Origin: Erysipelotrichaceae bacterium
Lineage (GTDB): Bacteria; Bacillota_I; Bacilli_A; Erysipelotrichales; Erysipelotrichaceae
Assembly: GCA_017404205.1 (NCBI GenBank)
Contig: JAFRCV010000015.1
Location: forward strand, 1-42,802
DNA: 42,802 nt
Reading direction: 5' to 3'
In this document: positions 11,480 through 42,802 of the stretch, piece after piece
Layout: every line of letters starts with the position of its first letter
How positions within the stretch are numbered: the stretch's first letter is position 1
Notes under the pieces: model-generated
Seen by the model: the letters and a program-made list of their open reading frames with translations, nothing else
The model's database searches: none
Told to the model about the DNA's origin: nothing
Translations under genes and position numbers: made by a program

Positions 11480-12364
11480 TTATTGACCCATTTGTTTAGC
11501 AACTTCTTCAGCAAAGTTTTCTTCACGCTTTTCAATGCCTTCGCCAACTAAATATCTAACAAAGCATTTAACAGTTGCGTTAGCAGCTTTTAATACAGCA
11601 GCGACTTTTTGACCAGGATCTTTGAAGTACTCTTGATCAACTAAACACATTTCTTTTAATGATTTAGAAACTTTACCATTGATAGCACCTTCAATAACCT
11701 TTTCTGGCTTGCCAGCAAATGAAGGATCATTCTTAACGATTTCTGTTTGAATTTCTCTTTCATGAGCTACAACATCAGCAGGCATATCATCACTTGATAC
11801 ATATGTAGGAGCCATAGAAGCAATTTGCATAGCCATATCTTTAGCTAAAGCTTCATCACCCTTAACGATACATAAAGTAGAAATCTTACCACCTAAATGA
11901 ATATAAGAACCAAATACTTCATCATCAGCTTTTTCAACAATTGCGAATCTTCTTAAAACGATCTTTTCGCCAATAGTTGCAGTTGCTTCAATGAATAAAT
12001 CATTTAAAGTCTTGCCATCAACACTTAATGCTAATGCTTCATCATTTGTTTTTGCATTGCTAGCTAAAATAGTTTTTGCAGTTTTATCAACTAATGCTAA
12101 GAATTGTTCATTTTTAGCAACGAAGTCAGTCTCTGAATTAATTTCAACTAGACATGCTCTATTTCCATCAACAACAACTTTTGATAAGCCTTCAGCAGCA
12201 ATTCTACTTGCTTTCTTGATTGATTTAGCGATACCTTTTTCTCTTAACCAGTCAATAGCTTTATCCATATCGCCATCAGATGCTGTAAGAGCATTCTTAC
12301 AATCAAGCATGCCGGCACCAGTCTTTTCTCTTAATTCTTTTACTTGAGCAGCAGTAACAGCCAT
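11480..12364 (-). CDS. tsf: Translation elongation factor Ts
   Basis: 294 residues. EF-Ts reloads EF-Tu with GTP. The N-terminal UBA-like domain has ELREKTGAGMLDCKNAL; the core has EINSETDFVAKNEQF, the contact region with EF-Tu. Its ATG overlaps the last base of the rpsB stop (TAATG), with the Shine-Dalgarno AAGGAGG inside the rpsB end, so S2 and EF-Ts are tightly coupled. Confidence 0.98.
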   Translation of the reverse strand: MAVTAAQVKELREKTGAGMLDCKNALTASDGDMDKAIDWLREKGIAKSIKKASRIAAEGLSKVVVDGNRACLVEINSETDFVAKNEQFLALVDKTAKTILASNAKTNDEALALSVDGKTLNDLFIEATATIGEKIVLRRFAIVEKADDEVFGSYIHLGGKISTLCIVKGDEALAKDMAMQIASMAPTYVSSDDMPADVVAHEREIQTEIVKNDPSFAGKPEKVIEGAINGKVSKSLKEMCLVDQEYFKDPGQKVAAVLKAANATVKCFVRYLVGEGIEKREENFAEEVAKQMGQ

Positions 12365-13404
12365 TATTCTTCCTCCTTAACTACTTTTTTAGGACGTCCA
12401 CGTTTTTTAGGAGCTTCTTCTACAGGAGCTTCTTGAACTGGAGCCTCAACACTTTCAACAACTTCTTCAACTACTGGAGCTTCTTCTACAGGAGCTTCAA
12501 CAGCTTCATCAGCTTTTACATCATTATTTTCTTTTTTATTGATATAGCGTTTTTCTGAATTGCGATTGAAACGGCCTTTTTGATTTTGTTGGCGATTTCT
12601 TTCTTCATTACGAGCTTTTCTTCTCTTTTCTTGTTCTTCAGCATGCTTTTCAACATTGATGATTACATCTTCCATAGTGATGTCTTCAACATCTTCACCT
12701 TCTTGATAAGCATCTTGTAAGATACCACCTTTAGCTTCAACAATAGCATCAGCCAATAAAGAGATGATTAATTTGATTGATTTAATAGCATCATCATTAG
12801 CAGGAATTGGATAATCAACAAATGCAGGATTGCAGTTTGTATCAGTTAAACCAAATACAGGAATGTTTAATTTACGAGCTTCTAAAACAGCGTTGTGATC
12901 TTCTTTTGGATCAACTACTACAACGGCATCAGGAAGCTTCTTCATTTCTTTAATACCACCTAAAAAGTTATCAAGACGAGTTGCTTCTTTACGAATTAAT
13001 ACGACTTCTTTTTTAGGATAAACATTTATAGTACCAGATGTTTCCATCTCGTTGATTTCAAGTAATCTTTTGATTCTTTTTTGGATAGTTCTGAAGTTTG
13101 TTAATGTTCCACCTAACCATCTTTGGTTAATGTAGAAACTACCAGATCTTGTAGCTTCATCAAGCACGATTTGTTGAGCTTGTTTCTTAGTACCTACAAA
13201 TAATACTTTACCGCCATTTTCAGCGATTTCTTTTAGCTTGTTATAAGCTACTTGTAAATCTTCTTGTGTCTTTTCTAAGTTGATGATATAAACACCATTC
13301 TTAGCAGTGTAAATAAATGGTTTACACTTAGGGTCCCATCTTCTAGTTTGATGTCCGAAATGAACACCATTTTCTAAAAGTTTACGCATTGAAACTAATT
13401 GCAT
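12364..13404 (-). CDS. rpsB: Ribosomal protein S2 with long Ala/Glu/Pro/Val C-terminal tail
   Basis: 346 residues, whereas S2 is usually 230-260. Residues 1-230 are normal S2 ([66 protein letters not shown]). After that comes a basic, coiled-coil-like stretch ([19 protein letters not shown]), then a low-complexity part rich in EAPVEEAP, and an end KKRGRPKK that matches an AT-hook core (RGRP). The tail is encoded in frame with no sign of a frameshift. It is the first gene of the operon and has its own promoter and leader. Confidence 0.97.
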
Positions 13405-13509
13405 TAAAAAATTTCCTCTCTTTCCGTTTCTCCTCCACTATTTCAAACATCACTAAGCAAATTGCCACGGAATGATGAATTCATAGTGTGCGTTTTCGCC
13501 TAAATAGGC
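13405..13509 (-). promoter_or_regulatory. Untranslated leader of rpsB
   Basis: About 105 nt lie between the predicted start of transcription and the rpsB ATG. It holds short inverted repeats, for example GCCTA-TT-TAGGC and GCG-AAAA-CGC near the 5' end and ATGAATTCAT in the middle, and a purine-rich GGAGGAG about 30 nt before the true site (AGAGGAAA). S2 is autoregulated in many bacteria, so a regulatory leader is plausible, but I see no match to a leader family I can name. Confidence 0.4.
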
Positions 13510-13515
13510 TTAATT

Positions 13516-13544
13516 ATTATATAAAAAACAATATTGTTTATCAA
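13516..13544 (-). promoter_or_regulatory. rpsB operon promoter
   Basis: TTGATA (13539-13544) and TATAAT (13516-13521) are spaced by 17 nt on the minus strand, a near-consensus vegetative promoter, placed 110 nt before rpsB and just after the xerC stop. The spacer includes the 12-bp palindrome AACAATATTGTT. Confidence 0.8.
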
Positions 13545-13547
13545 TAG

Positions 13548-14453
13548 CTACTTCTTAGAATGTGGATGTGAAATATCGACAGTCTTTTTTAGACGATCGA
13601 ATGTTAAATGTGTATAGATTTGTGTAGTGCTTAAATTCTCATGTCCTAATAATTCTTGGACTGTTCTTAAGTCTGTTCCATTGTCTAATAAATGAGTCGC
13701 AAAAGAATGTCTTAACATATGTGGATGCAAATTCATATTTAGGCCACATTTTACTCTTGTATTTTCCAACATTATTTGGATCATTCTTGGAGATATTCTT
13801 GTGCCCCTTTTTGAAATAAATAGATTTTCGACACCATCTTTAACATAAATAGTTCTAAATTCATTTACATATCTTTCAATAAGTTCATCTAAACCATCAT
13901 AATATGGAGCGATTCTTTCTTTATTGCCTTTTCCAATAACTCTAATAATTAATTCTTTACGATCAATTTGATCTATTTTTAAATCACATAGTTCAGATAT
14001 TCTAAGCCCACATGCATACATCATTTCAATAATTGTCCTATCCCTTAATTCAATAGGATTATCCAAATCAAAAGAATATAGAATTCTTTCAATTTGTTCA
14101 AAAGTTAAGACATCAGGTAATTTTTTCTCTACATGAATCTTTTTGAATTGACTGAAAGGATTATGATCAACTTTATTGAAGATTTCTAAATATTTATAAA
14201 AAGAACGTAACGCACTCAAGTTTCTTGAATATGATGAATTACTAATCTTGCCTCTTGTGATCTTACCTGAACGCAATAAAGATATATAATCCAAAGATTC
14301 TTCTTTTGAAACATCATTAAAAGATTTGATGTTTCTTTCTTCAAGAAACTCAATGAAGCGGGCTATATCGCGATAATATGCATCAGCGGTTTTATTTGAG
14401 CCCGTTCTTTTTGCGCTTAAATATTTTATAAAATCATCAAGTGTTTTATACAT
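13548..14453 (-). CDS. xerC: Tyrosine recombinase XerC (CodV-type)
   Basis: 301 residues from the ATG at 14453; a TTG at 14474 is less likely. It resolves chromosome dimers at dif together with XerD. An N-terminal SAM-like core-binding domain (TADAYYRDIARFIEFL) is followed by the catalytic domain with Arg in ACGLRISEL, Lys in GKGNKER, His-x-x-Arg in HMLRHSFATHLL, and GHENLSTTQIYTHL, which contains the nucleophilic Tyr. It overlaps trmFO by 8 nt; topA-trmFO-xerC is the order around codV in Bacilli, so XerC is preferred over XerD. Confidence 0.92.
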   Translation of the reverse strand: MYKTLDDFIKYLSAKRTGSNKTADAYYRDIARFIEFLEERNIKSFNDVSKEESLDYISLLRSGKITRGKISNSSYSRNLSALRSFYKYLEIFNKVDHNPFSQFKKIHVEKKLPDVLTFEQIERILYSFDLDNPIELRDRTIIEMMYACGLRISELCDLKIDQIDRKELIIRVIGKGNKERIAPYYDGLDELIERYVNEFRTIYVKDGVENLFISKRGTRISPRMIQIMLENTRVKCGLNMNLHPHMLRHSFATHLLDNGTDLRTVQELLGHENLSTTQIYTHLTFDRLKKTVDISHPHSKK

Positions 14454-15744
14454 ATTGTTCTTTATATTTATCAATGTTTTCTAATGCCACTTTAACATAA
14501 TATGCTTTCTTATCTTTCTTTGGTCCTTTATACAAACATTTAAAGATTCCAAAGTTGGCATTCATTGGCACAAGTTTAGTGATATTCTCATCACTTATAT
14601 AATTAGCCATAGCACCCATCATTGTATCAGCACCTAATTCATTTTTGATTTTACCATCTAAATATTGTTTCATACATAAAGCGCCATATAGACCACTAGC
14701 AGCCGATTCAACATAACCTTCAACGCCACTAATTTGCCCAGTTACAAAGATATTGGGATAATTAATCATTTGATATTTATTATTTAATACTTTTGGTGAA
14801 TTAATGTATGTATTTCTATGCATTACGCCATATCTAACAATTGAAACATTTCTTAATGCTGGAATTAATTTAAGCACTCTTTCTTGTTCACCAAAGGTAA
14901 GGTGTGTTTGAAAACCAACAATATTATATAAAGTATCAATAGCATTGTCTTTCCTTAATTGAACAACAGCATAAGGTCTACTTCCATCATGTTCTAGTCC
15001 TACTGGTTTCATCGGGCCAAACAATAAAGTTTCAAAACCTCTTCTAGCCATTTCTTCAAAAGGCATGCAACCTTCAAAATATATTTCTGAATCAATATCA
15101 TGAACTTCAATCTTTTTGGCTTTTACTACTTCGTCATGGAAAATAGCATATTCTTCTTTAGTTAATGGACAATTAATATAGTCTCCTTTAGATTCTTCAT
15201 CATATCTTGATTTATAGTAAGCACTATTAAAATCAATAGAATCTTTTTCAACAATTGGCGATACAGCATCATAAAAATAAAGATAGTCTTTGCCACATAG
15301 TTTCTTTATTTCTTTTGATAAATCGCCATCACATAAAGGACCAGCTGCAATTATTGTGGGAGTGTTTATATCTATTTGTTTAACTTCTTCGTGTATAACT
15401 TCAATGTTTGGATTATTATTAATTACATCAGTTATATATTTAGAAAAGCCAACACGGTCAACAGCTAATGACTTGCCGGCTTCAACTCTATTTTTATCAG
15501 CAGCTTCCATAATTAAAGAATCAAGATGACGCATCTCTTCTTTTAATAAGCCAACAGCATTATTAATATCATCACTTCTTAAAGAGTTTGAACAAATAAG
15601 TTCACTATATAAGTCAGTTTTAAAAGCCTCATGTTTTTTGATTGGCTTTTGTTCATAAAGTTTTACTTTGATGCCTTTTAAAGCTAGTTGATAAGCAGCT
15701 TCACACCCAGCTAGTCCCGCACCTATTACTCTTACTTCTTTCAT
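14446..15744 (-). CDS. trmFO: tRNA (m5U54) methyltransferase, folate/FAD-dependent
   Basis: 432 residues, normal length. It methylates U54 in the T-loop of tRNA using methylenetetrahydrofolate and FAD. The N-terminal FAD site VIGAGLAGCEAAYQLA, then ELICSNSLRSDDINNAVGLL and GVMHRNTYINSPKVL are typical, with GQISGVEGYVESAASGL near the end. It overlaps topA by ATGA. Neighbours topA and xerC match Bacilli. Confidence 0.96.
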   Translation of the reverse strand: MKEVRVIGAGLAGCEAAYQLALKGIKVKLYEQKPIKKHEAFKTDLYSELICSNSLRSDDINNAVGLLKEEMRHLDSLIMEAADKNRVEAGKSLAVDRVGFSKYITDVINNNPNIEVIHEEVKQIDINTPTIIAAGPLCDGDLSKEIKKLCGKDYLYFYDAVSPIVEKDSIDFNSAYYKSRYDEESKGDYINCPLTKEEYAIFHDEVVKAKKIEVHDIDSEIYFEGCMPFEEMARRGFETLLFGPMKPVGLEHDGSRPYAVVQLRKDNAIDTLYNIVGFQTHLTFGEQERVLKLIPALRNVSIVRYGVMHRNTYINSPKVLNNKYQMINYPNIFVTGQISGVEGYVESAASGLYGALCMKQYLDGKIKNELGADTMMGAMANYISDENITKLVPMNANFGIFKCLYKGPKKDKKAYYVKVALENIDKYKEQYV

Positions 15745-35902: not shown

Positions 35903-36616
35903 CTATTCTTTTTCTTTTAGCATTTCTATTATTTCATTAACATTAGATTCTTTAAGAACATTCTTGTATTTCTTATCAAACGAAATCAAAGATTGTCGTA
36001 TACTTGTCTCTTGCTCTTTTATGCTTGAATAATAGTCTTCATAGTTATTCTTTTTAATAGCATTCTCAATAAATTCCTTTGATTCTTCAGGAATATCATC
36101 CCAACTATTGTACAACTGACAAGCAGCCAATTTAATACTGTCGATTGTTATGGCCTTATTATTTTTTAGGTGTTCATTTAAAATTCCAAGAATGTCAGAA
36201 AAATCATTTTTATATTTTCTTCCAGAACGAAGTTTCATTGCGATTAAGTATTCAGCATTAATAGTATATATTCTTACAATATTTGAAAACGTTCTATAGT
36301 AACGAGCATATTTAAGCAGTTTTTTTGAATAGGAACTTGTATTCGAGAAATCTGCGTTAATCCAACCATTTGGAAGTCCATATTTATCGCTAATTTTATT
36401 TGCTGCTTCTTTCATTACAGAAGAGGCATTGATAATCGCATCAACATCATTTGTCATCTCTCTAAAACCATAATTAATAAGAATTGAAGCACCGCCAACA
36501 AGTACAATGTCGGCCGGTATTTTTTTACCACTTAATTTTCTATACTCTTTGGCCAATTCTTTCAAATATATTTCAAGATTTTGTTTTGTAAAGAATTCTT
36601 TTTCCTTAAGCGACAT
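35903..36616 (-). CDS. Nucleotidyltransferase-fold protein (DUF6036/AbiEii-like), probable toxin
   Basis: 237 residues. ADIVLVGGASILINYGFREM then TNDVDAI gives the Gly-Gly (41-42) and Asp-x-Asp (57-59) of the nucleotidyltransferase fold, followed by AEYLIAMKLRSGRKYKNDFS, where Lys and Asp are conserved in DUF6036-like proteins. Such proteins occur as toxins of type IV toxin-antitoxin and abortive infection systems (AbiEii, MenT), which modify tRNA or other targets. It overlaps the XRE regulator gene by 11 nt. Toxicity is inferred. Confidence 0.78.
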   Translation of the reverse strand: MSLKEKEFFTKQNLEIYLKELAKEYRKLSGKKIPADIVLVGGASILINYGFREMTNDVDAIINASSVMKEAANKISDKYGLPNGWINADFSNTSSYSKKLLKYARYYRTFSNIVRIYTINAEYLIAMKLRSGRKYKNDFSDILGILNEHLKNNKAITIDSIKLAACQLYNSWDDIPEESKEFIENAIKKNNYEDYYSSIKEQETSIRQSLISFDKKYKNVLKESNVNEIIEMLKEKE

Positions 36617-37175
36617 CTCTTACCTCGTTTTCGATTATGTTAAATCTTAGAAACTCTGGAATAGCTTTTTTTACTGCATCATTTATTGCTTTTTCATTTT
36701 TTTCAATTGAACTTATTGCTAAAACGCTTGTGGGATAAATTGGCTTAGATAACTTATAATTTCTTAAATCATCATAATCTTTACATATAGGTATTTTATT
36801 GATACGGCATAAATAATCGAGCATTCCAAGCATATATAAACTTTCAGGGTACTTTTTCCTTTTATATAAAGTACGTATTTCTTGGCTACTTAAAAGATCT
36901 AATAGAAATCGTCTATCGCCAAGCCTTTTTAATCGATGACAAGCATTACTTTTAAATAATTCAAAGTTAGAGAAACTATTAGTTTCACTTAAATACAAAT
37001 CTTCAAAAGTTGTTCCTAATGCTTTTGATATCTTATATACAGTCTCTGCACTACACTTTTTAATATCTGTTTTCCCATTGCATATATCGTTTATGGTTGC
37101 ATAAGGAATGGAACTAATCTTTGATAAACGATATTTTGTAATGTTCTTTTTCTCCATGTGATCAATAATGTTCAT
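36606..37175 (-). CDS. XRE-family regulator, probable antitoxin
   Basis: 189 residues. A Cro/CI-type helix-turn-helix at about 12-60 (ITKYRLSKISSIPYATINDI, KISKALGTTFEDLYLSE) followed by an uncharacterised domain of 120 residues (RRFLLDLLSSQEIRTLYKRK, PESLYMLGMLDYL). It precedes and overlaps the nucleotidyltransferase gene. Its promoter carries a perfect 12-bp inverted repeat, so autoregulation is likely. GAGGA lies before the ATG. Confidence 0.82.
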   Translation of the reverse strand: MNIIDHMEKKNITKYRLSKISSIPYATINDICNGKTDIKKCSAETVYKISKALGTTFEDLYLSETNSFSNFELFKSNACHRLKRLGDRRFLLDLLSSQEIRTLYKRKKYPESLYMLGMLDYLCRINKIPICKDYDDLRNYKLSKPIYPTSVLAISSIEKNEKAINDAVKKAIPEFLRFNIIENEVRDVA

Positions 37176-37191
37176 GTTTTATTCCTCAACT

Positions 37192-37222
37192 TCATTATAA
37201 CGGTATTCCGTTATAATGACAA
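37192..37222 (-). promoter_or_regulatory. Promoter with perfect palindromic operator of the XRE pair
   Basis: TTGTCA (37217-37222), 17 nt, TATAAT (37194-37199). The perfect inverted repeat TCATTATAACGG-TATT-CCGTTATAATGA (37192-37219, 12-bp arms) covers the spacer and the -10, so a bound XRE dimer would block transcription. Confidence 0.88.
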
Positions 37223-37236
37223 GTTGTGGTTTTATA

Positions 37237-40200
37237 TTATCTTTCACTATAAATATCATCTAGTTTTTCTTCTAAAGTTCCATTTTCTGCATATGGTAAA
37301 GTATCGCACATCTTTAAGTTGTGCTTTTTAATAATGCAGTTTTTATCAAAACCTAATATGAAGTTTTTAGCGATATTATAAATAATCTGTGTTGGAGCTA
37401 ATCCATAAACTTGCTTTTCGAAAATATGTTTTAATCGCTCATTGTCATCAGGATATTTTTCTTTCATCTTCTTGCTTCTAAATAGACGTTTAACTATTTC
37501 GGCAATATATAAGCCCGACTTCATATATAAGTCAGCAAATGTTTTATCATCTTCATCAAAACATCCGGGATTTTCTTTTTCAAGTAAATCCACCATTTCA
37601 ATTACAACTTTCTTAGGGGTATATATTTGATTGGTTTTTTGTGGAGGAATGTAATCAAATATATCTTCATCTGCTGAATCATTAAAATAATCTGCTAATT
37701 CATCTTTTTTTCTTAAGAATTCTTTAATTGAATCATTGAAAACAACAGGTTCAAATAGATGGCCTTCAAAATGTCTCTTATTTCTTTCTTCATCTATATA
37801 GTCACCACCATCTCTTAAAAATCTAAATTCATCTAAAGAAATACTAGTAACTTCCTTAAAAACATCATCAGGAATAATTGAATCAAAATTTTCTAATGTA
37901 GTATCTTCGTTTCCGTAAGCCATAATAAATGATGGAATTGTTCTCGCAAAACCTCTTAAATGATCTCTAACGCTATCTTCAACGCCTTCTTTTTTTCTTA
38001 TTTGTTTCTTTTCTTCTGCTATTTTTAAAGCAGTTTCGCAAGATTCTTGAGCTAATTCATTAGTACCTTTACTAATAGCGTTTTTGAACTCTTGAGCAGC
38101 TTTTACTGTTTTTTCTTCATATTCTTTTTCTATTCGTTTAATGCTTTTTCCAGTTTCAAATCTGTTTTCTAATTCTTTCTCCTTTTCTGCTTCAATTTCT
38201 TTTTTGTTAGCATTAAAATTATCAACTATCTTTCTAACTGTATAATCAACGTTTGATTTTAATGTTCTTTCTATTTGCTTCTTATCGGAATTCTTTATTT
38301 CATTTGAATATTGTTGTTCAATCTTTTGACAAATTGGTTCAACTATCTTTTCAGTTAGTATTGCTTTATAAATATCTTCAACTGTATTGCTTTTTATAAC
38401 ATCATTAATTATGTCTTCAACTATCGTATTAACATCACCAAATATTTTTTCACCAAATAAATCTTTGGCGTCGCCAACTTCAACCACAACATTTCCATTT
38501 TCATCAACGTTTATATCGGTTGGAACTTCAACCTTACTCTTTTTGCTTTTAGGTTCACCAGTAGGTACAAATTGATTAATAATATCTAACACTTCTTTTG
38601 GAGCTGAAAAAATACTAGATATATTCTGAAATAAGAAATTAGACATAAATCCTCTTTTAACTACTTCTTGAGATTTTATCTTTCTTGGAACAGTTAGAAC
38701 CTTTTCAGCATCAAGTTCAACCATTTCGCCATTTTCATCTTCTCCTAAAACTGGAAAGAAATTTAATAGGTCCTTAATATTCTTTTTTCTTATCTCGCTA
38801 TCTCCACCACCATTTGCAGTATATTTATTTAGATTGTTTGCGAATTGTTCATAAACAATAAGTGTTCTAGCTGGATCAAAATCAAATATATAAGCATTCT
38901 CTTTTCTGTAGGCATTAACACCATCTTTGAATAGACATGGGTTTTGTGCTCTAAAAGCTGCTTGCATATATAAAGAAGGGCTTTCTAAATTACATAACAT
39001 TAAAACACCTGTCCATTCAGGAATTGTAACGCCTGTAGTTAATTGGCCAACCGATAATGTAATTGTCTTCTCGTGATTCTTAATGCCAATTCTTACTTTA
39101 TCAAAAGATTCTTTTGATTCAGCCTCTTCATCTTTCTTGCCATTCCCAGCTGCAAGAATTACATGATAATCTTTAAAAACAGGATGATTTTTGAGTTTTC
39201 TTTCTAAAGCTTTAGCACTATCAACCCTATTTAAAAACCAAAATGTATGTTTTAATTCATTTCTTAATTCTTCTGTAGAAAAAGGAAACTTTTCTAATGT
39301 AGTAAGAGCATCTAAAAACTTATCAACTGCTTCATTATGTACAAATGCACCACTTTCATTAGTCGCAAAGAATTCATTTAAATCAAAAGCATATTCTTCA
39401 ACTTCATCATCTATTGTTAAGCCTTTTTCAACCTCTTCTTTAACAATATCTGACATTCTATAAGTGAACATATTAAGTTTAGGCAAAACTTCATAAGGAT
39501 TCTCGCCCTTAGAATAATCCCATTCTTTCTTTTTTCTTTGTTCATCTGCATATGTCCAGTTATAAATGGCATTGTCATCGAATTTGTTGGTGGCAATTTG
39601 TTTAAATGGAGTTCCTGATAAATGTAAAGTAAATTTTCTTTTTATTCTATCAAGCACAACATCCGTTTTGTATGTATCTACCCCTTCATGAGCTTCATCA
39701 ATTACTAATAAGTCCCATTCAATATCTCTTATTTCTTTTAATTTGTCATAATCACCATTAAAATATTTGGAACCTTTAAGGTCTTGTAAACTAACAAATT
39801 CAATCAATCTCGTAATATCAGGATTGCCAGTTCTAGCTCTTAAATCATCGAATTCTTTGTATTTTAAAAGATACTTTTTGCCATACAAAGCACCTACACC
39901 AGATACAAAACGATATTTTTCTGTTCCAACAAATTGCACATAATCTGAATACCATGAATTAGCTATAGCTGGTCTATTAGTAATTATTAAAACATTATGA
40001 GCATCTATCTTCTGCATAAAATCATATACAGTTAAAGTCTTACCAAAACGTGGCTTACAATTCCATAAGAATTCAGTATTGTTGATACCATTTTTCATAT
40101 AAATAAATGTTTCATTAACGGCATCTTTTTGTTCATCACGAAGATTATAAGTAGATATACTATCAATTAATGTATCTATAATCCCCTTATTTGATCTAAA

Positions 40201-40533
40201 TTCATTAAATTCTTTTTTAGAAACATCAGGCTCTATTTTAAACCATTCGTTATTTTCGCCTTTTTCTTGTTTATAATCTTTCTTTCTTAGATAGCGATGA
40301 AAATCTTTATCAATAAATCTTTCATTAGAACCATCATCAAAAACAGCATTACCCTGCCACTCTTTTTTAGCACGTATACCAACAGTATGAGTTTGTTGTT
40401 TTATTCTTTCATCTACATTTTGTTCAGTATATCCAATTTTAATCCAACCATCATGATAAGTAACACCAGGAGTGGTATAAGCATATATCATTGGAACAAC
40501 TTTTTTAGTAGTCTCTAAACTAATCTTAGGCAT
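37237..40533 (-). CDS. GIY-YIG nuclease / SF2 helicase with C-terminal partial methylase domain
   Basis: 1098 residues. Residues 14-100 match the T5orf172-type GIY-YIG nuclease (IYAYTTPG, GWIKIGYT, Arg43, Glu96). A superfamily 2 helicase follows: Walker A CKPRFGKT (159-166), DEAH (279-282), LSGTPF, and LTTGVTIPEW with MQAAFRAQNP. A long charged region (about 700-860) has coiled-coil character. The end has IYTPKKVVIEMVDLLEK and TFADLYMKSGLYIAEIVKRL with YGLAPTQIIYNIAKNF, the pattern of an N6-adenine methylase from motif X to motif III, but it stops before an NPPY. It is therefore likely the restriction subunit that works with the upstream methylase. The two genes share a base (TAATG). Confidence 0.85.
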   Translation of the reverse strand: MPKISLETTKKVVPMIYAYTTPGVTYHDGWIKIGYTEQNVDERIKQQTHTVGIRAKKEWQGNAVFDDGSNERFIDKDFHRYLRKKDYKQEKGENNEWFKIEPDVSKKEFNEFRSNKGIIDTLIDSISTYNLRDEQKDAVNETFIYMKNGINNTEFLWNCKPRFGKTLTVYDFMQKIDAHNVLIITNRPAIANSWYSDYVQFVGTEKYRFVSGVGALYGKKYLLKYKEFDDLRARTGNPDITRLIEFVSLQDLKGSKYFNGDYDKLKEIRDIEWDLLVIDEAHEGVDTYKTDVVLDRIKRKFTLHLSGTPFKQIATNKFDDNAIYNWTYADEQRKKKEWDYSKGENPYEVLPKLNMFTYRMSDIVKEEVEKGLTIDDEVEEYAFDLNEFFATNESGAFVHNEAVDKFLDALTTLEKFPFSTEELRNELKHTFWFLNRVDSAKALERKLKNHPVFKDYHVILAAGNGKKDEEAESKESFDKVRIGIKNHEKTITLSVGQLTTGVTIPEWTGVLMLCNLESPSLYMQAAFRAQNPCLFKDGVNAYRKENAYIFDFDPARTLIVYEQFANNLNKYTANGGGDSEIRKKNIKDLLNFFPVLGEDENGEMVELDAEKVLTVPRKIKSQEVVKRGFMSNFLFQNISSIFSAPKEVLDIINQFVPTGEPKSKKSKVEVPTDINVDENGNVVVEVGDAKDLFGEKIFGDVNTIVEDIINDVIKSNTVEDIYKAILTEKIVEPICQKIEQQYSNEIKNSDKKQIERTLKSNVDYTVRKIVDNFNANKKEIEAEKEKELENRFETGKSIKRIEKEYEEKTVKAAQEFKNAISKGTNELAQESCETALKIAEEKKQIRKKEGVEDSVRDHLRGFARTIPSFIMAYGNEDTTLENFDSIIPDDVFKEVTSISLDEFRFLRDGGDYIDEERNKRHFEGHLFEPVVFNDSIKEFLRKKDELADYFNDSADEDIFDYIPPQKTNQIYTPKKVVIEMVDLLEKENPGCFDEDDKTFADLYMKSGLYIAEIVKRLFRSKKMKEKYPDDNERLKHIFEKQVYGLAPTQIIYNIAKNFILGFDKNCIIKKHNLKMCDTLPYAENGTLEEKLDDIYSER

Positions 40534-42521
40534 TATTCCATCTCCTTAACATTTCTTTCAATAAAATCAATTTCTTCATTAGATAAATCATATTTCTTAT
40601 ATAATTGTTTATCTATTTCTGGAATTGACTTTGACCAATCAATATCAGATTTTGAAGTGAAGTCTTGAAGCGGAACGTATTGATACACTTTTTGAGTAGT
40701 ATGCTGTGTCTGCTTTTTTATCCCGACTAGCGCCCTAAAAAACTTTGTTTTTATGTAAGAAATCATATTTCTTGCTTCTTCTTTAGTATCGAATGGTCCA
40801 ATTTGTAGGAATGTTTCTGTACATAGTTCTCCTGGCGTAGACAGGACTGGCGTAGACATTTGTTCCCCCATTTCACCGCAGCCGTAGGCTTCGGCAATAA
40901 ATACTTTGTATTTATTGAGGCCCAAATCTCTCCTAGGAATAGGATAATCTTTTGGTAGATATTTCCAACCTCTGTTGTGTCCATCTATAAGGCCAAGTAT
41001 TTTATAACAACCTTTTGTTGGTTCATTATCAAATTCCGGCAATTCATATTTGCTTGCATTACGCATCGTCTCGGCTGCGAAAGCATATGGCTTTCGCGCC
41101 GAGACGATTTTTGATACAAAATTTGAAGAATTGCTAATAACTTTATTTTTCACAGATACTAACTCGTTATATCTGATAAAAATATCTTCGCCTTTTTCAG
41201 ATAAGTATCTTTTTGAAATTGTTTCACCATTTGCATCAATTCTGTGGCATTCGCACATACCACTATAATTGCTATCTCTTAAATAAACACAAACCCCACC
41301 TTTTATATCGACTCCGTTAAAAATTTTATTGCTATCAGCATAATCAACAAGAATCTTGATACTTTTATCATCAAGCATCTGTCTTCTATATTCATCTAGA
41401 CCTTTCCCGCCTGTCATCCATCTTGATGGTTGTATTAAACAACTAATTCTCGAATTCTTTTTAGCTTCTTGAGAAAAATATTGGTAAACAGGTGATGCGC
41501 TTGCTTGTGCGCCACCATCCATAACCATATAAGGTGGATTTCCAATAATATAATCAAATTTCATTTTGTTGTCTCCTGTTAGTTCTTTAAATATTAATGT
41601 TCTATTTGTTTTCCAGTTTTTAATTCTTGCTAATTGTTTTTCTTTTTTTGTTTCATTTTCATCTTCTTCATATAAACCAAGTTTTATTTCTGTTGGTTTA
41701 ACATCTATTTCTGAATATGGGATGGTATAGTCGATTCCATCCATTTGCCAAATGTTCCATGTTACAATTTCCGCAAATTGTTTTAATATATCTAAATCTG
41801 GTTGATGCCCAAATTTGAATATCATATTGTCAATAAGCGTATACAATAAGTTTTCTCTTGCAATAACAACATTGTCACCTTGATAGTCATATCCATATGT
41901 TGATTCATAGGCTATTTTTGCTTGCTCTAGCCATTTTTTTTCATCTGCTATATTTTCGTTTAATATTCTTAGCTTTCGATCAAGGATACCTATTCTTTCT
42001 TCTACAGGAATAATTCTTCCTTTGACAACGTCATATCTACTCACAAGATAAGGAGCTTCACCACAAGTAATTTCAAGCCGAGTATTAGATATATATTCAT
42101 CCCACGTCTTTTTTAACTTTTTTGAAAATGTTATTTTTCTTTTATTGGTTTTCCAATCATTTTCTAATTCTTTATTGAAAACATTACTTCTTTCAAACCA
42201 ATCTTCATCTATGAAGTTATTCATTTTGTTGCACATCCAAGCTGGAGTAAAAACTTCACCTTTATCTTTGGTTCTTGCTTGTTGTTCTTGCATACTTTTA
42301 GAAACTCTTGGTGTTAAGATATTCGCATTAACAAGCTGTTCTATTTTCATCTCTCTTTCTGGCAAAAACCATTCACCAAATTTCTCATAAGTATTGGTAG
42401 CCCAATGCAAATTGCTGCCAGTCGTTTTATCTTTAATAAGAATCTTCATTAAAGATGGTGATAAAGTATAGATTTTATTTTCAATTGCATCAATAGGCTC
42501 ATTTAATACAGTATTTGTCAT
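40533..42521 (-). CDS. Eco57I-type adenine-specific DNA methyltransferase
   Basis: 662 residues. GEVFTPAWMCNKM (89-100) is motif X, LEITCGEAPYLV (149-160) a variant of motif I, and IGNPPYMV with NPPY at 328-331 is motif IV for N6-adenine methylation. The C-terminal half is a target-recognition type region, with IVSARKPYAFAAET, AEAYGCGEMGEQM, CTETFLQIGPFDTKEEA, YIKTKFFRALVGIKKQTQHT and VYQYVPLQDF, conserved in restriction-linked Eco57I methylases. It is the first gene of the cassette and has a GAGGA Shine-Dalgarno. It carries an unusual GC-rich hairpin in the coding sequence. The recognition site cannot be told. Confidence 0.88.
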   Translation of the reverse strand: MTNTVLNEPIDAIENKIYTLSPSLMKILIKDKTTGSNLHWATNTYEKFGEWFLPEREMKIEQLVNANILTPRVSKSMQEQQARTKDKGEVFTPAWMCNKMNNFIDEDWFERSNVFNKELENDWKTNKRKITFSKKLKKTWDEYISNTRLEITCGEAPYLVSRYDVVKGRIIPVEERIGILDRKLRILNENIADEKKWLEQAKIAYESTYGYDYQGDNVVIARENLLYTLIDNMIFKFGHQPDLDILKQFAEIVTWNIWQMDGIDYTIPYSEIDVKPTEIKLGLYEEDENETKKEKQLARIKNWKTNRTLIFKELTGDNKMKFDYIIGNPPYMVMDGGAQASASPVYQYFSQEAKKNSRISCLIQPSRWMTGGKGLDEYRRQMLDDKSIKILVDYADSNKIFNGVDIKGGVCVYLRDSNYSGMCECHRIDANGETISKRYLSEKGEDIFIRYNELVSVKNKVISNSSNFVSKIVSARKPYAFAAETMRNASKYELPEFDNEPTKGCYKILGLIDGHNRGWKYLPKDYPIPRRDLGLNKYKVFIAEAYGCGEMGEQMSTPVLSTPGELCTETFLQIGPFDTKEEARNMISYIKTKFFRALVGIKKQTQHTTQKVYQYVPLQDFTSKSDIDWSKSIPEIDKQLYKKYDLSNEEIDFIERNVKEME
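40832..40858 (-). repeat. 12-bp direct repeat within the methylase gene
   Basis: CTGGCGTAGACA occurs at 40832-40843 and 40847-40858, period 15, encoding STP-V-L-STP. It is close to the 9-bp perfect inverted repeat CAATAAATA-CTTTG-TATTTATTG (40895-40917). Confidence 0.7.
41065..41108. repeat. GC-rich 19-bp hairpin inside the methylase gene
   Basis: ATCGTCTCGGC-T-GCGAAAGC, loop ATATG, GCTTTCGC-GCCGAGACGAT: 19 paired bases with one bulged T. It encodes SARKPYAFAAET in a family-conserved place, but uses codons such as TCG, GCG, CGA, GCC, GAG and ACG that are rare around it. Confidence 0.85.
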
Positions 42522-42746: not shown

Positions 42747-42802
42747 GTGATTTATGGATATATAAGAGTTTCAACAAAGAATCAAAATATTGATAGACAA
42801 TA
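42747..42802 (+). CDS. Serine recombinase (resolvase/invertase), N-terminal fragment
   Basis: 18 codons to the window edge from a GTG: IYGYIRVSTKNQNIDRQ. YIRVSTxxQNxxRQ is the start of the resolvase/invertase catalytic domain, with the Ser of RVS as the nucleophile. It is the only plus-strand gene. AAGGAGG lies 9 nt before the GTG. It could serve resolution of a mobile element, inversion or integration; the rest lies outside. Confidence 0.85.
   Translation, partial: MIYGYIRVSTKNQNIDRQ

What the first reader, a model, noticed from the sequence alone, without database searches (positions are those of the whole stretch)
37237..42521. Restriction-like cassette with split methylase features and GIY-YIG/helicase fusion
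The helicase protein joins a T5orf172-type GIY-YIG nuclease, an SF2 motor and a methylase-like domain with motif X and I to III but no NPPY, while the partner has NPPY but a weakened motif I (ITCGEAPYL). The two may form one functional methylase in trans or the C-terminal piece may only bind AdoMet as an allosteric switch. It resembles Type ISP enzymes cut into two proteins with a different nuclease, so cleavage after translocation by GIY-YIG is predicted.
Basis: partly seen in the sequence, partly recalled or inferred. Interest (0 to 1): 0.62.

Follow-up and report, generated by a model that had tools for sequence, protein, structure and literature searches.

The report
Restriction system with two rival methylase halves
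This is a two-gene bacterial anti-phage restriction system, related to the known DrdVI "split methylase" enzymes, in which one DNA-reading methylase half appears to be shared between a working partner that marks the host's own DNA and a disabled look-alike partner fused to the motor that destroys foreign DNA.

Summary
37237-40533(-) encodes GIY-YIG nuclease + SF2 motor + a C-terminal "first half" of an adenine methylase (motifs X, I-III, no NPPY). 40533-42521(-) encodes an Eco57I-type methylase with NPPY. The partner's motif I is not weakened: LEITCGEAPY is invariant in its subfamily and the motif II acid is kept. The helicase's half is the degenerate one: K-[S/T/N]-G in motif I in every readable relative, motif II acid lost.

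In 86 non-redundant relatives there is one degenerate SAM half (PNH), nearly always one intact SAM half (NH) and one NPPY+TRD half (CH). CH is fused to NH, fused to PNH, or free; NH and PNH never share a chain. CH lineages changed partner at least 21 times on the tree. AlphaFold2 predicts PNH+CH to form one complete methylase fold. Three phage contigs keep NH+CH but show neither PNH nor helicase. So NH:CH is very probably the methylase, and PNH belongs to restriction.

Nearest characterised relative: DrdVI (M1/M2 "split methylase" plus translocase), with PNH on M2 instead of the motor. Preferred mechanism, inferred: PNH replaces NH on CH to give the restriction complex its reading head. The trans-methylase idea is not favoured. 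New variant of a known kind.

The parts
37237..40533 (-). restriction/translocase protein, 1098 aa: GIY-YIG + SF2 motor + helical linker + degenerate SAM half (PNH)
   Evidence: AF2 model pLDDT 73.9, pTM 0.49; motor matches LlaGI 5ffj, Z 17.5, rmsd 2.7 over 187 aa
40201..40488 (-). T5orf172-type GIY-YIG nuclease domain (aa 16-111)
   Evidence: Pfam PF10544 3.6e-7; Y17, K32-I-G-Y35, R43, D75 invariant in 37 homologues
38614..40161 (-). SF2 helicase-like motor (aa about 125-640), Walker A PRFGKT, DEAH 279-282, QAAFRAQ motif VI
   Evidence: PF04851 3.8e-12; motifs invariant; fold match to Type ISP and Snf2 motors
37939..38556 (-). variable long-helix region (aa about 660-865), possible coupler
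   Evidence: low conservation, helical in AF2 model
37240..37701 (-). PNH: degenerate SAM half of a gamma-class N6-adenine methylase (aa 945-1098), ends just before where NPPY would start
   Evidence: hhalign to the N-terminal part of M2.DrdVI-type proteins 99.6% probability, E 5e-25, and to the intact SAM half 95.5%
37507..37533 (-). motif I-like DLYMKSGLY (aa 1001-1009) with Lys1005
   Evidence: K-[STN]-G in 87 of 87 readable PNH of 86 systems plus window (L128 read)
40533..42521 (-). methylase 662 aa, NH-CH fusion
   Evidence: PADLOC MTase_II models PDLC03390 (aa 10-315) and PDLC03375 (aa 318-661) match the two halves separately
41580..42452 (-). NH: intact SAM half (aa 24-314), motifs X, I, II, III
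   Evidence: separate gene in about half of the relatives
42222..42257 (-). motif X, EVFTPAWMCNKM (aa 89-100)
   Evidence: alignment
42045..42077 (-). motif I, LEITCGEAPYL (aa 149-159)
   Evidence: EITCGEAP invariant in 11 diverse NH; canonical EPACGxGNF in the DrdVI-type NH
40536..41564 (-). CH: catalytic half plus target recognition domain (aa 320-662)
   Evidence: 58.7% identical to the CH of L093, which is fused to PNH instead of NH
41529..41540 (-). motif IV NPPY (aa 328-331), near the start of CH and at the natural split point

Best explanation
A complete two-gene, ATP-dependent restriction-modification system: a rearranged relative of the DrdVI 'split methylase' systems. Its methylase is built from two half-folds, a SAM half (NH) and a catalytic + target-recognition half (CH). 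NH:CH, here one chain, methylates adenine in the host's own sites. The motor protein ends in a second, disabled SAM half (PNH: Lys in motif I, motif II acid lost) that fits the same face of CH. When PNH pairs with CH in place of NH, the GIY-YIG/SF2 protein gains the same reading head without methylating; at an unmethylated site it hydrolyses ATP, translocates and cuts with the GIY-YIG domain. Because one CH serves both jobs, changing CH changes both specificities together. Shown here by sequence: the parts, their conservation, the one-NH/one-PNH/one-CH rule, CH partner switching, and phage methylases lacking PNH. Predicted: that PNH+CH form one fold. Inferred: partner exchange, translocation, cleavage, phage defence.
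For: Homology to DrdVI, whose M1+M2 were cloned in E. coli and assigned m6A at GCAGCC (PMC6430315), and to M1-M2.MaeIV by the authors' statement (PMC10113651). 86 non-redundant systems: 34 NH + PNH-CH + HEL, 19 NH + single-chain HEL-PNH-CH, 17 NH + CH + HEL-PNH, 12 NH-CH + HEL-PNH, 4 odd; one PNH in all 86, one NH in 83, one CH in 82, NH and PNH never in one chain. CH tree: at least 21 changes of partner label; window CH sister (98%) to a PNH-fused CH. AF2 of a PNH-CH chain: pLDDT 85, pTM 0.83; it superposes over residues 17-517 on CamA (Z 21.4) and 28-504 on M.TaqI (Z 16.4), so PNH sits where the SAM half sits. L174, L175, L176: NH+CH, no PNH or helicase found in the records. NH keeps its motif II acid in 84 of 85 by pattern (the exception reads FSIE, also acidic); PNH carries K-[STN]-G.
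Against: No complex was modelled: only single chains could be folded, so competition at one face is inferred from PNH folding with CH in cis and from NH-CH fusions. In the window NH is covalently linked to CH, which favours NH:CH and requires PNH to displace it. The phage contigs are fragments with no completeness estimate. No activity, methylation or phage protection has been measured for a window-type system. Why the Lys of PNH is kept is unexplained. Loci were collected with queries from the parts themselves and filtered for completeness, so the counts are not an unbiased census.
Confidence: 0.5

Rival explanations
1. Static docking: NH:CH is a permanent methylase and recognition module, and PNH is a pseudo-enzyme adaptor that anchors the motor to it without replacing NH (as Type I and III enzymes carry a fixed methylase). 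Methylation state is signalled through the contact.
For: In the window NH and CH are one chain. Known translocating enzymes such as LlaGI carry an intact methylase domain in the DNA-bound structure. PNH is helix-rich in the helicase model and could bind elsewhere.
Against: In 53 of 86 systems PNH is covalently in front of CH in exactly the order of a normal methylase, and such a chain is predicted as one complete methylase fold. A half Rossmann sheet without CH would be left exposed.
Confidence: 0.33
2. One reading: the helicase C-terminal half supplies the AdoMet site and forms one functional methylase in trans with the NPPY protein.
For: The halves are homologous to real split methylases (M1/M2.DrdVI) and PNH can fold with CH.
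Against: The partner has its own intact SAM half; PNH lost the motif II acid and has Lys in motif I in all readable cases; phage contigs show NH+CH without PNH.
Confidence: 0.06
3. PNH is vestigial, or the cassette is decayed and inactive.
For: PNH has lost canonical SAM residues.
Against: PNH is among the most conserved stretches of the protein (MKSG, PPQKTNQI) across several phyla; both ORFs are intact, with nuclease, ATPase and NPPY residues present.
Confidence: 0.04
4. PNH binds a different small ligand through the K-[S/T]-G loop (a sensor that gates restriction) rather than serving as a structural partner.
For: The loop is more conserved than a pure scaffold would need: K-[STN]-G in all 87 readable cases.
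Against: No ligand is known; the Lys may equally fill the empty SAM pocket or contact NPPY.
Confidence: 0.07

Closest known systems
DrdVI split methylase/RM system (M1.DrdVI, M2.DrdVI, DrdVI), Deinococcus wulumuqiensis 479, plasmid pDrdVI; also M1-M2.MaeIV
   Same: Same parts by homology: intact SAM half, degenerate K-S-G SAM half, NPPY+TRD half, SF2 translocase; the Bibersteinia paper describes DrdVI as a fused translocase and REase, in a passage on a GIY-YIG gene that resembles it
   Different: In DrdVI the degenerate half is on M2 in front of NPPY and the SAM half (212 aa) is a separate gene. In the window the degenerate half ends the motor protein and a longer SAM half (CGEAPY type) is fused to NPPY+TRD. 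Pfam did not find the GIY-YIG domain in DrdVI at 1e-3; the session's own GIY profile did
Bibersteinia trehalosi Btr188ORF1790/ORF1760
   Same: Described as a protein like M1.DrdVI at the N-terminus and M2.DrdVI at the C-terminus, plus a GIY-YIG translocase (PMC4996451): probably the window layout
   Different: Fragmented and inactive in those strains; its domain layout was not checked here
Type ISP enzymes LlaGI and LlaBIII
   Same: SF2 motor, gamma-class methylase and TRD; fold matches 5ffj and 4xqk
   Different: Single polypeptide with an Mrr nuclease and one active methylase; no second SAM half
[quoted passage not shown] OspHL35III (PMC4752239)
   Same: Single TRD, translocase, GIY-YIG endonuclease
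   Different: MmeI-like intact methylase chain; nuclease and translocase are separate proteins
PADLOC models PDLC03390, PDLC03375, PDLC03626
   Same: Match NH, CH and the single-chain relative separately
   Different: Filed as ordinary Type II methylases or Type IIG; the pairing of intact and degenerate halves is not expressed in these models

Membership tests
DrdVI-type split methylase/RM | chain with GIY-YIG nuclease and SF2 translocase | tested here: met
DrdVI-type split methylase/RM | SAM half and NPPY half on separate chains (M1, M2) | tested here: not met
   NH and CH fused in the window; separate in 17 close relatives
DrdVI-type split methylase/RM | degenerate SAM half in front of NPPY in the same chain (M2) | tested here: not met
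   PNH is at the end of the motor protein
DrdVI-type split methylase/RM | parts homologous to M1, M2 and the translocase | tested here: met
   hhalign PNH-PNHb 99.6%, NH-NHs 99.3%; window CH 39-59% identical to its nearest PNH-fused CH
DrdVI-type split methylase/RM | m6A methylation of a short asymmetric site | not testable with these tools
   needs methylome
Type ISP | single polypeptide | tested here: not met
   two genes
Type ISP | N-terminal Mrr-family nuclease | tested here: not met
   T5orf172 GIY-YIG instead
Type ISP | SF2 motor | tested here: met
Type ISP | helical coupler between motor and methylase | tested here: inconclusive
   helical region aa 660-865 in a low-pTM model
Type ISP | cleavage on convergence of translocating enzymes | not testable with these tools
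   biochemistry needed
Type IIG | nuclease and methylase in one chain, one TRD | tested here: not met
   nuclease and active methylase on different chains
Type I | separate HsdS with two TRDs, HsdM, HsdR | tested here: not met
   no HsdS or HsdM family match in the four genes scanned

The most novel reading that the evidence does not exclude
A restriction-modification switch by exchange of half-enzymes: one catalytic/target-recognition half is shared between an active SAM half (making a methylase) and a Lys-substituted pseudo SAM half carried by the nuclease-motor (making a cofactor-free reading head). The same half-fold is thus used for both modification and restriction, and swapping it re-targets both at once.
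Probability: 0.42. Interest if true: 0.8.

Novelty: new variant of a known kind. Interest (0 to 1): 0.6.

Why it matters
Open literature calls these enzymes 'split methylases' but, in what I could search, does not say that each system carries two homologous SAM halves, one intact and one systematically disabled, and a single NPPY/recognition half that has been attached to either. If the exchange model is right, it explains how such systems keep restriction and modification specificity matched, gives a mechanism for choosing between protecting and destroying DNA, and shows a pseudo-enzyme half used as a reading head. It is testable with DrdVI parts in laboratory E. coli. PADLOC models currently file the halves as separate Type II methylases.

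Tried and rejected
Truncation or frameshift of a once complete fused methylase at the helicase C-terminus: rejected, homologues end there too. Weakened motif I through decay: rejected. A natural chain holding NH, PNH and CH together, whose fold would have shown which half wins: none found among all loci. Viral homologues of the window helicase: none from a single-sequence scan. Viral scan with A2 failed for lack of conserved stretches. PDB by sequence: no relative at E 0.01 for the PNH-CH profile; nothing meaningful for the window proteins. NCBIfam: no equivalog. Coevolution between halves: not attempted, too few sequences. The VIA list for the helicase model is filled by motors, so it says little about the PNH region. 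The CH tree is the quick version because the careful search did not finish.
Full report
WHAT IS THERE. Two genes on the minus strand overlap by one base: a 662-aa methylase (40533-42521) followed by a 1098-aa nuclease-motor protein (37237-40533). Pfam gives T5orf172 and ResIII for the second and Eco57I for the first. In 37 homologues the GIY-YIG, Walker A, DEAH and motif VI residues are invariant, so both activities look intact. The metal-site acid of the GIY-YIG domain is most likely D75 rather than the usual Glu (sequence reading).

THE HELICASE TAIL. Residues 945-1098 are among the best conserved of the protein (PPQKTNQI.TP, FxDLYMKSGLY, QVYGLAPT, ILGF) and the homologues stop at the same point. 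By profile comparison the tail is homologous to the N-terminal part of M2.DrdVI-type proteins (99.6%, E 5e-25) and to the intact SAM halves (95.5%, E 1.5e-8), not to the catalytic half. It is therefore a SAM half (motifs X, I, II, III) that ends where motif IV would begin. It is degenerate: motif I reads K-[S/T/N]-G in all 87 readable cases of 86 systems plus the window, and the acid of motif II is missing. I call it PNH.

THE PARTNER. Its motif I (LEITCGEAPY) is invariant in its subfamily and its motif II acid (GYDYQGD) is kept; other members of the same family have the textbook EPACGxGNF. So the 'weakened' reading is not supported: this is the intact SAM half (NH), fused to the catalytic and recognition half (CH, NPPY onward). 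In about half of the close relatives NH and CH are separate genes, split just before MKFDxxIGNPPY.

THE RULE. Loci were collected by helicase, PNH-CH and NH profiles from genomes, plasmids and virus contigs and annotated with half-specific HMMs. After removing near-copies and requiring all parts, 86 systems remain: 34 NH + PNH-CH + HEL (DrdVI layout), 19 NH + HEL-PNH-CH (single chain, like a Type ISP enzyme plus a lone SAM half), 17 NH + CH + HEL-PNH, 12 NH-CH + HEL-PNH (window layout), and 4 odd ones. All 86 have one PNH; 83 have one NH; 82 have one CH. No chain holds both NH and PNH. In 12 of the 19 single-chain systems PNH was recognised only by its K-[S/T]-G motif, not by the profile. On a tree of 88 CH sequences the label (fused to NH, fused to PNH, free) needs at least 21 changes; the window CH is sister, with 98% support and 59% identity, to a CH fused to PNH. 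This is the quick tree, not the careful one.

TWO TESTS OF FUNCTION. First, AlphaFold2 on a natural PNH-CH chain (L116, 30 sequences) gives pLDDT 85.2 and pTM 0.83. The model superposes over nearly its whole length on CamA (Z 21.4, rmsd 4.6, 402 residues), M.TaqI (Z 16.4, rmsd 4.0, 337 residues) and LlaGI (Z 19.6). So PNH is predicted to take the place of the SAM half on CH. Second, phage contigs L175 and L176 carry an NH-CH fusion, and L174 adjacent NH and CH, with no PNH or helicase found in the records; L175 also carries a phage RNA polymerase and a gp2.5-like protein. The L176 CH is 82.5% identical to that of a full PNH-CH system. A phage needs only protection, so NH:CH is probably the whole methylase, and PNH travels with the motor. 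The records are fragments, so absence is suggestive, not proof.

KNOWN RELATIVES. The search led to plasmid pDrdVI. M1-2.DrdVI was cloned and assigned m6A at GCAGCC, listed as IIG. Fomenkov et al. [quoted passage not shown] A Bibersteinia pair resembling M1+M2 fused plus a GIY-YIG translocase is probably the window layout. I found no paper describing the second, degenerate SAM half or its relocation; my searches covered open-access papers only, and REBASE was not available.

MECHANISM. Both SAM halves should use the same face of CH (normal strand order 3-2-1 from the SAM half, 4-5-7-6 from CH; general knowledge of the fold), so they should be mutually exclusive. I therefore favour partner exchange: NH:CH modifies, PNH:CH reads for the motor and nuclease. 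The main rival is static docking of PNH onto an intact NH:CH. Translocation and GIY-YIG cleavage follow by analogy with Type ISP and are untested.

LIMITS. No complex modelling was possible; counts come from searches seeded with the parts and filtered for completeness; function in this organism is unknown.

Noticed in passing
L237:11190-15213: A single-chain relative is followed by two spare CH cassettes, one direct (12154-13202) and one inverted (13244-14218), with a 33-nt, 97% inverted repeat on the NPPY codons (12154-12186 / 14176-14208) next to a tyrosine recombinase (14359-15213, PF00589): looks like an invertible specificity cassette.
   Followed up: partly
L009:1946-2947: An inverted extra CH lies upstream of NH, with a decayed inverted repeat (39 nt, 79%) on the same NPPY codons; it is 61% identical to the window CH.
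   Followed up: partly
window 42748-42802: Start of a small serine recombinase (MIYGYIRVSTKNQNIDRQ), cut by the window end, beside the methylase; a similar resolvase precedes the methylase in L017 (PF00239) and L018, and recombinase genes are annotated near DrdVI and on pTEF3.
   Followed up: no
window 35903-37175: HTH_26/xre regulator (36606-37175) overlapping a DUF6036 nucleotidyltransferase (35903-36616), both minus strand, directly downstream of the helicase: toxin-antitoxin-like pair.
   Followed up: no
window 37192-37219: Perfect 12-nt inverted repeat TCATTATAACGG/CCGTTATAATGA just upstream of the xre gene, a likely operator.
   Followed up: no
L039:4191-4925; L015:4447-4818; L036:3972-4901; L013:5354-5998; L028:3250-3912: Extra nuclease-like or unknown genes inserted in or beside the split methylase: HNH, DUF559, DUF4268, and additional T5orf172 GIY-YIG proteins.
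   Followed up: partly
L174, L175, L176: Virus contigs with NH plus CH and no PNH or helicase found, possible phage self-protection methylases; L175 carries a phage RNA polymerase and a gp2.5-like protein.
   Followed up: yes
L109 (Enterococcus faecium pAT02-a): A single-chain relative with its small SAM half sits about 1 kb from an optrA resistance gene on the same plasmid.
   Followed up: no
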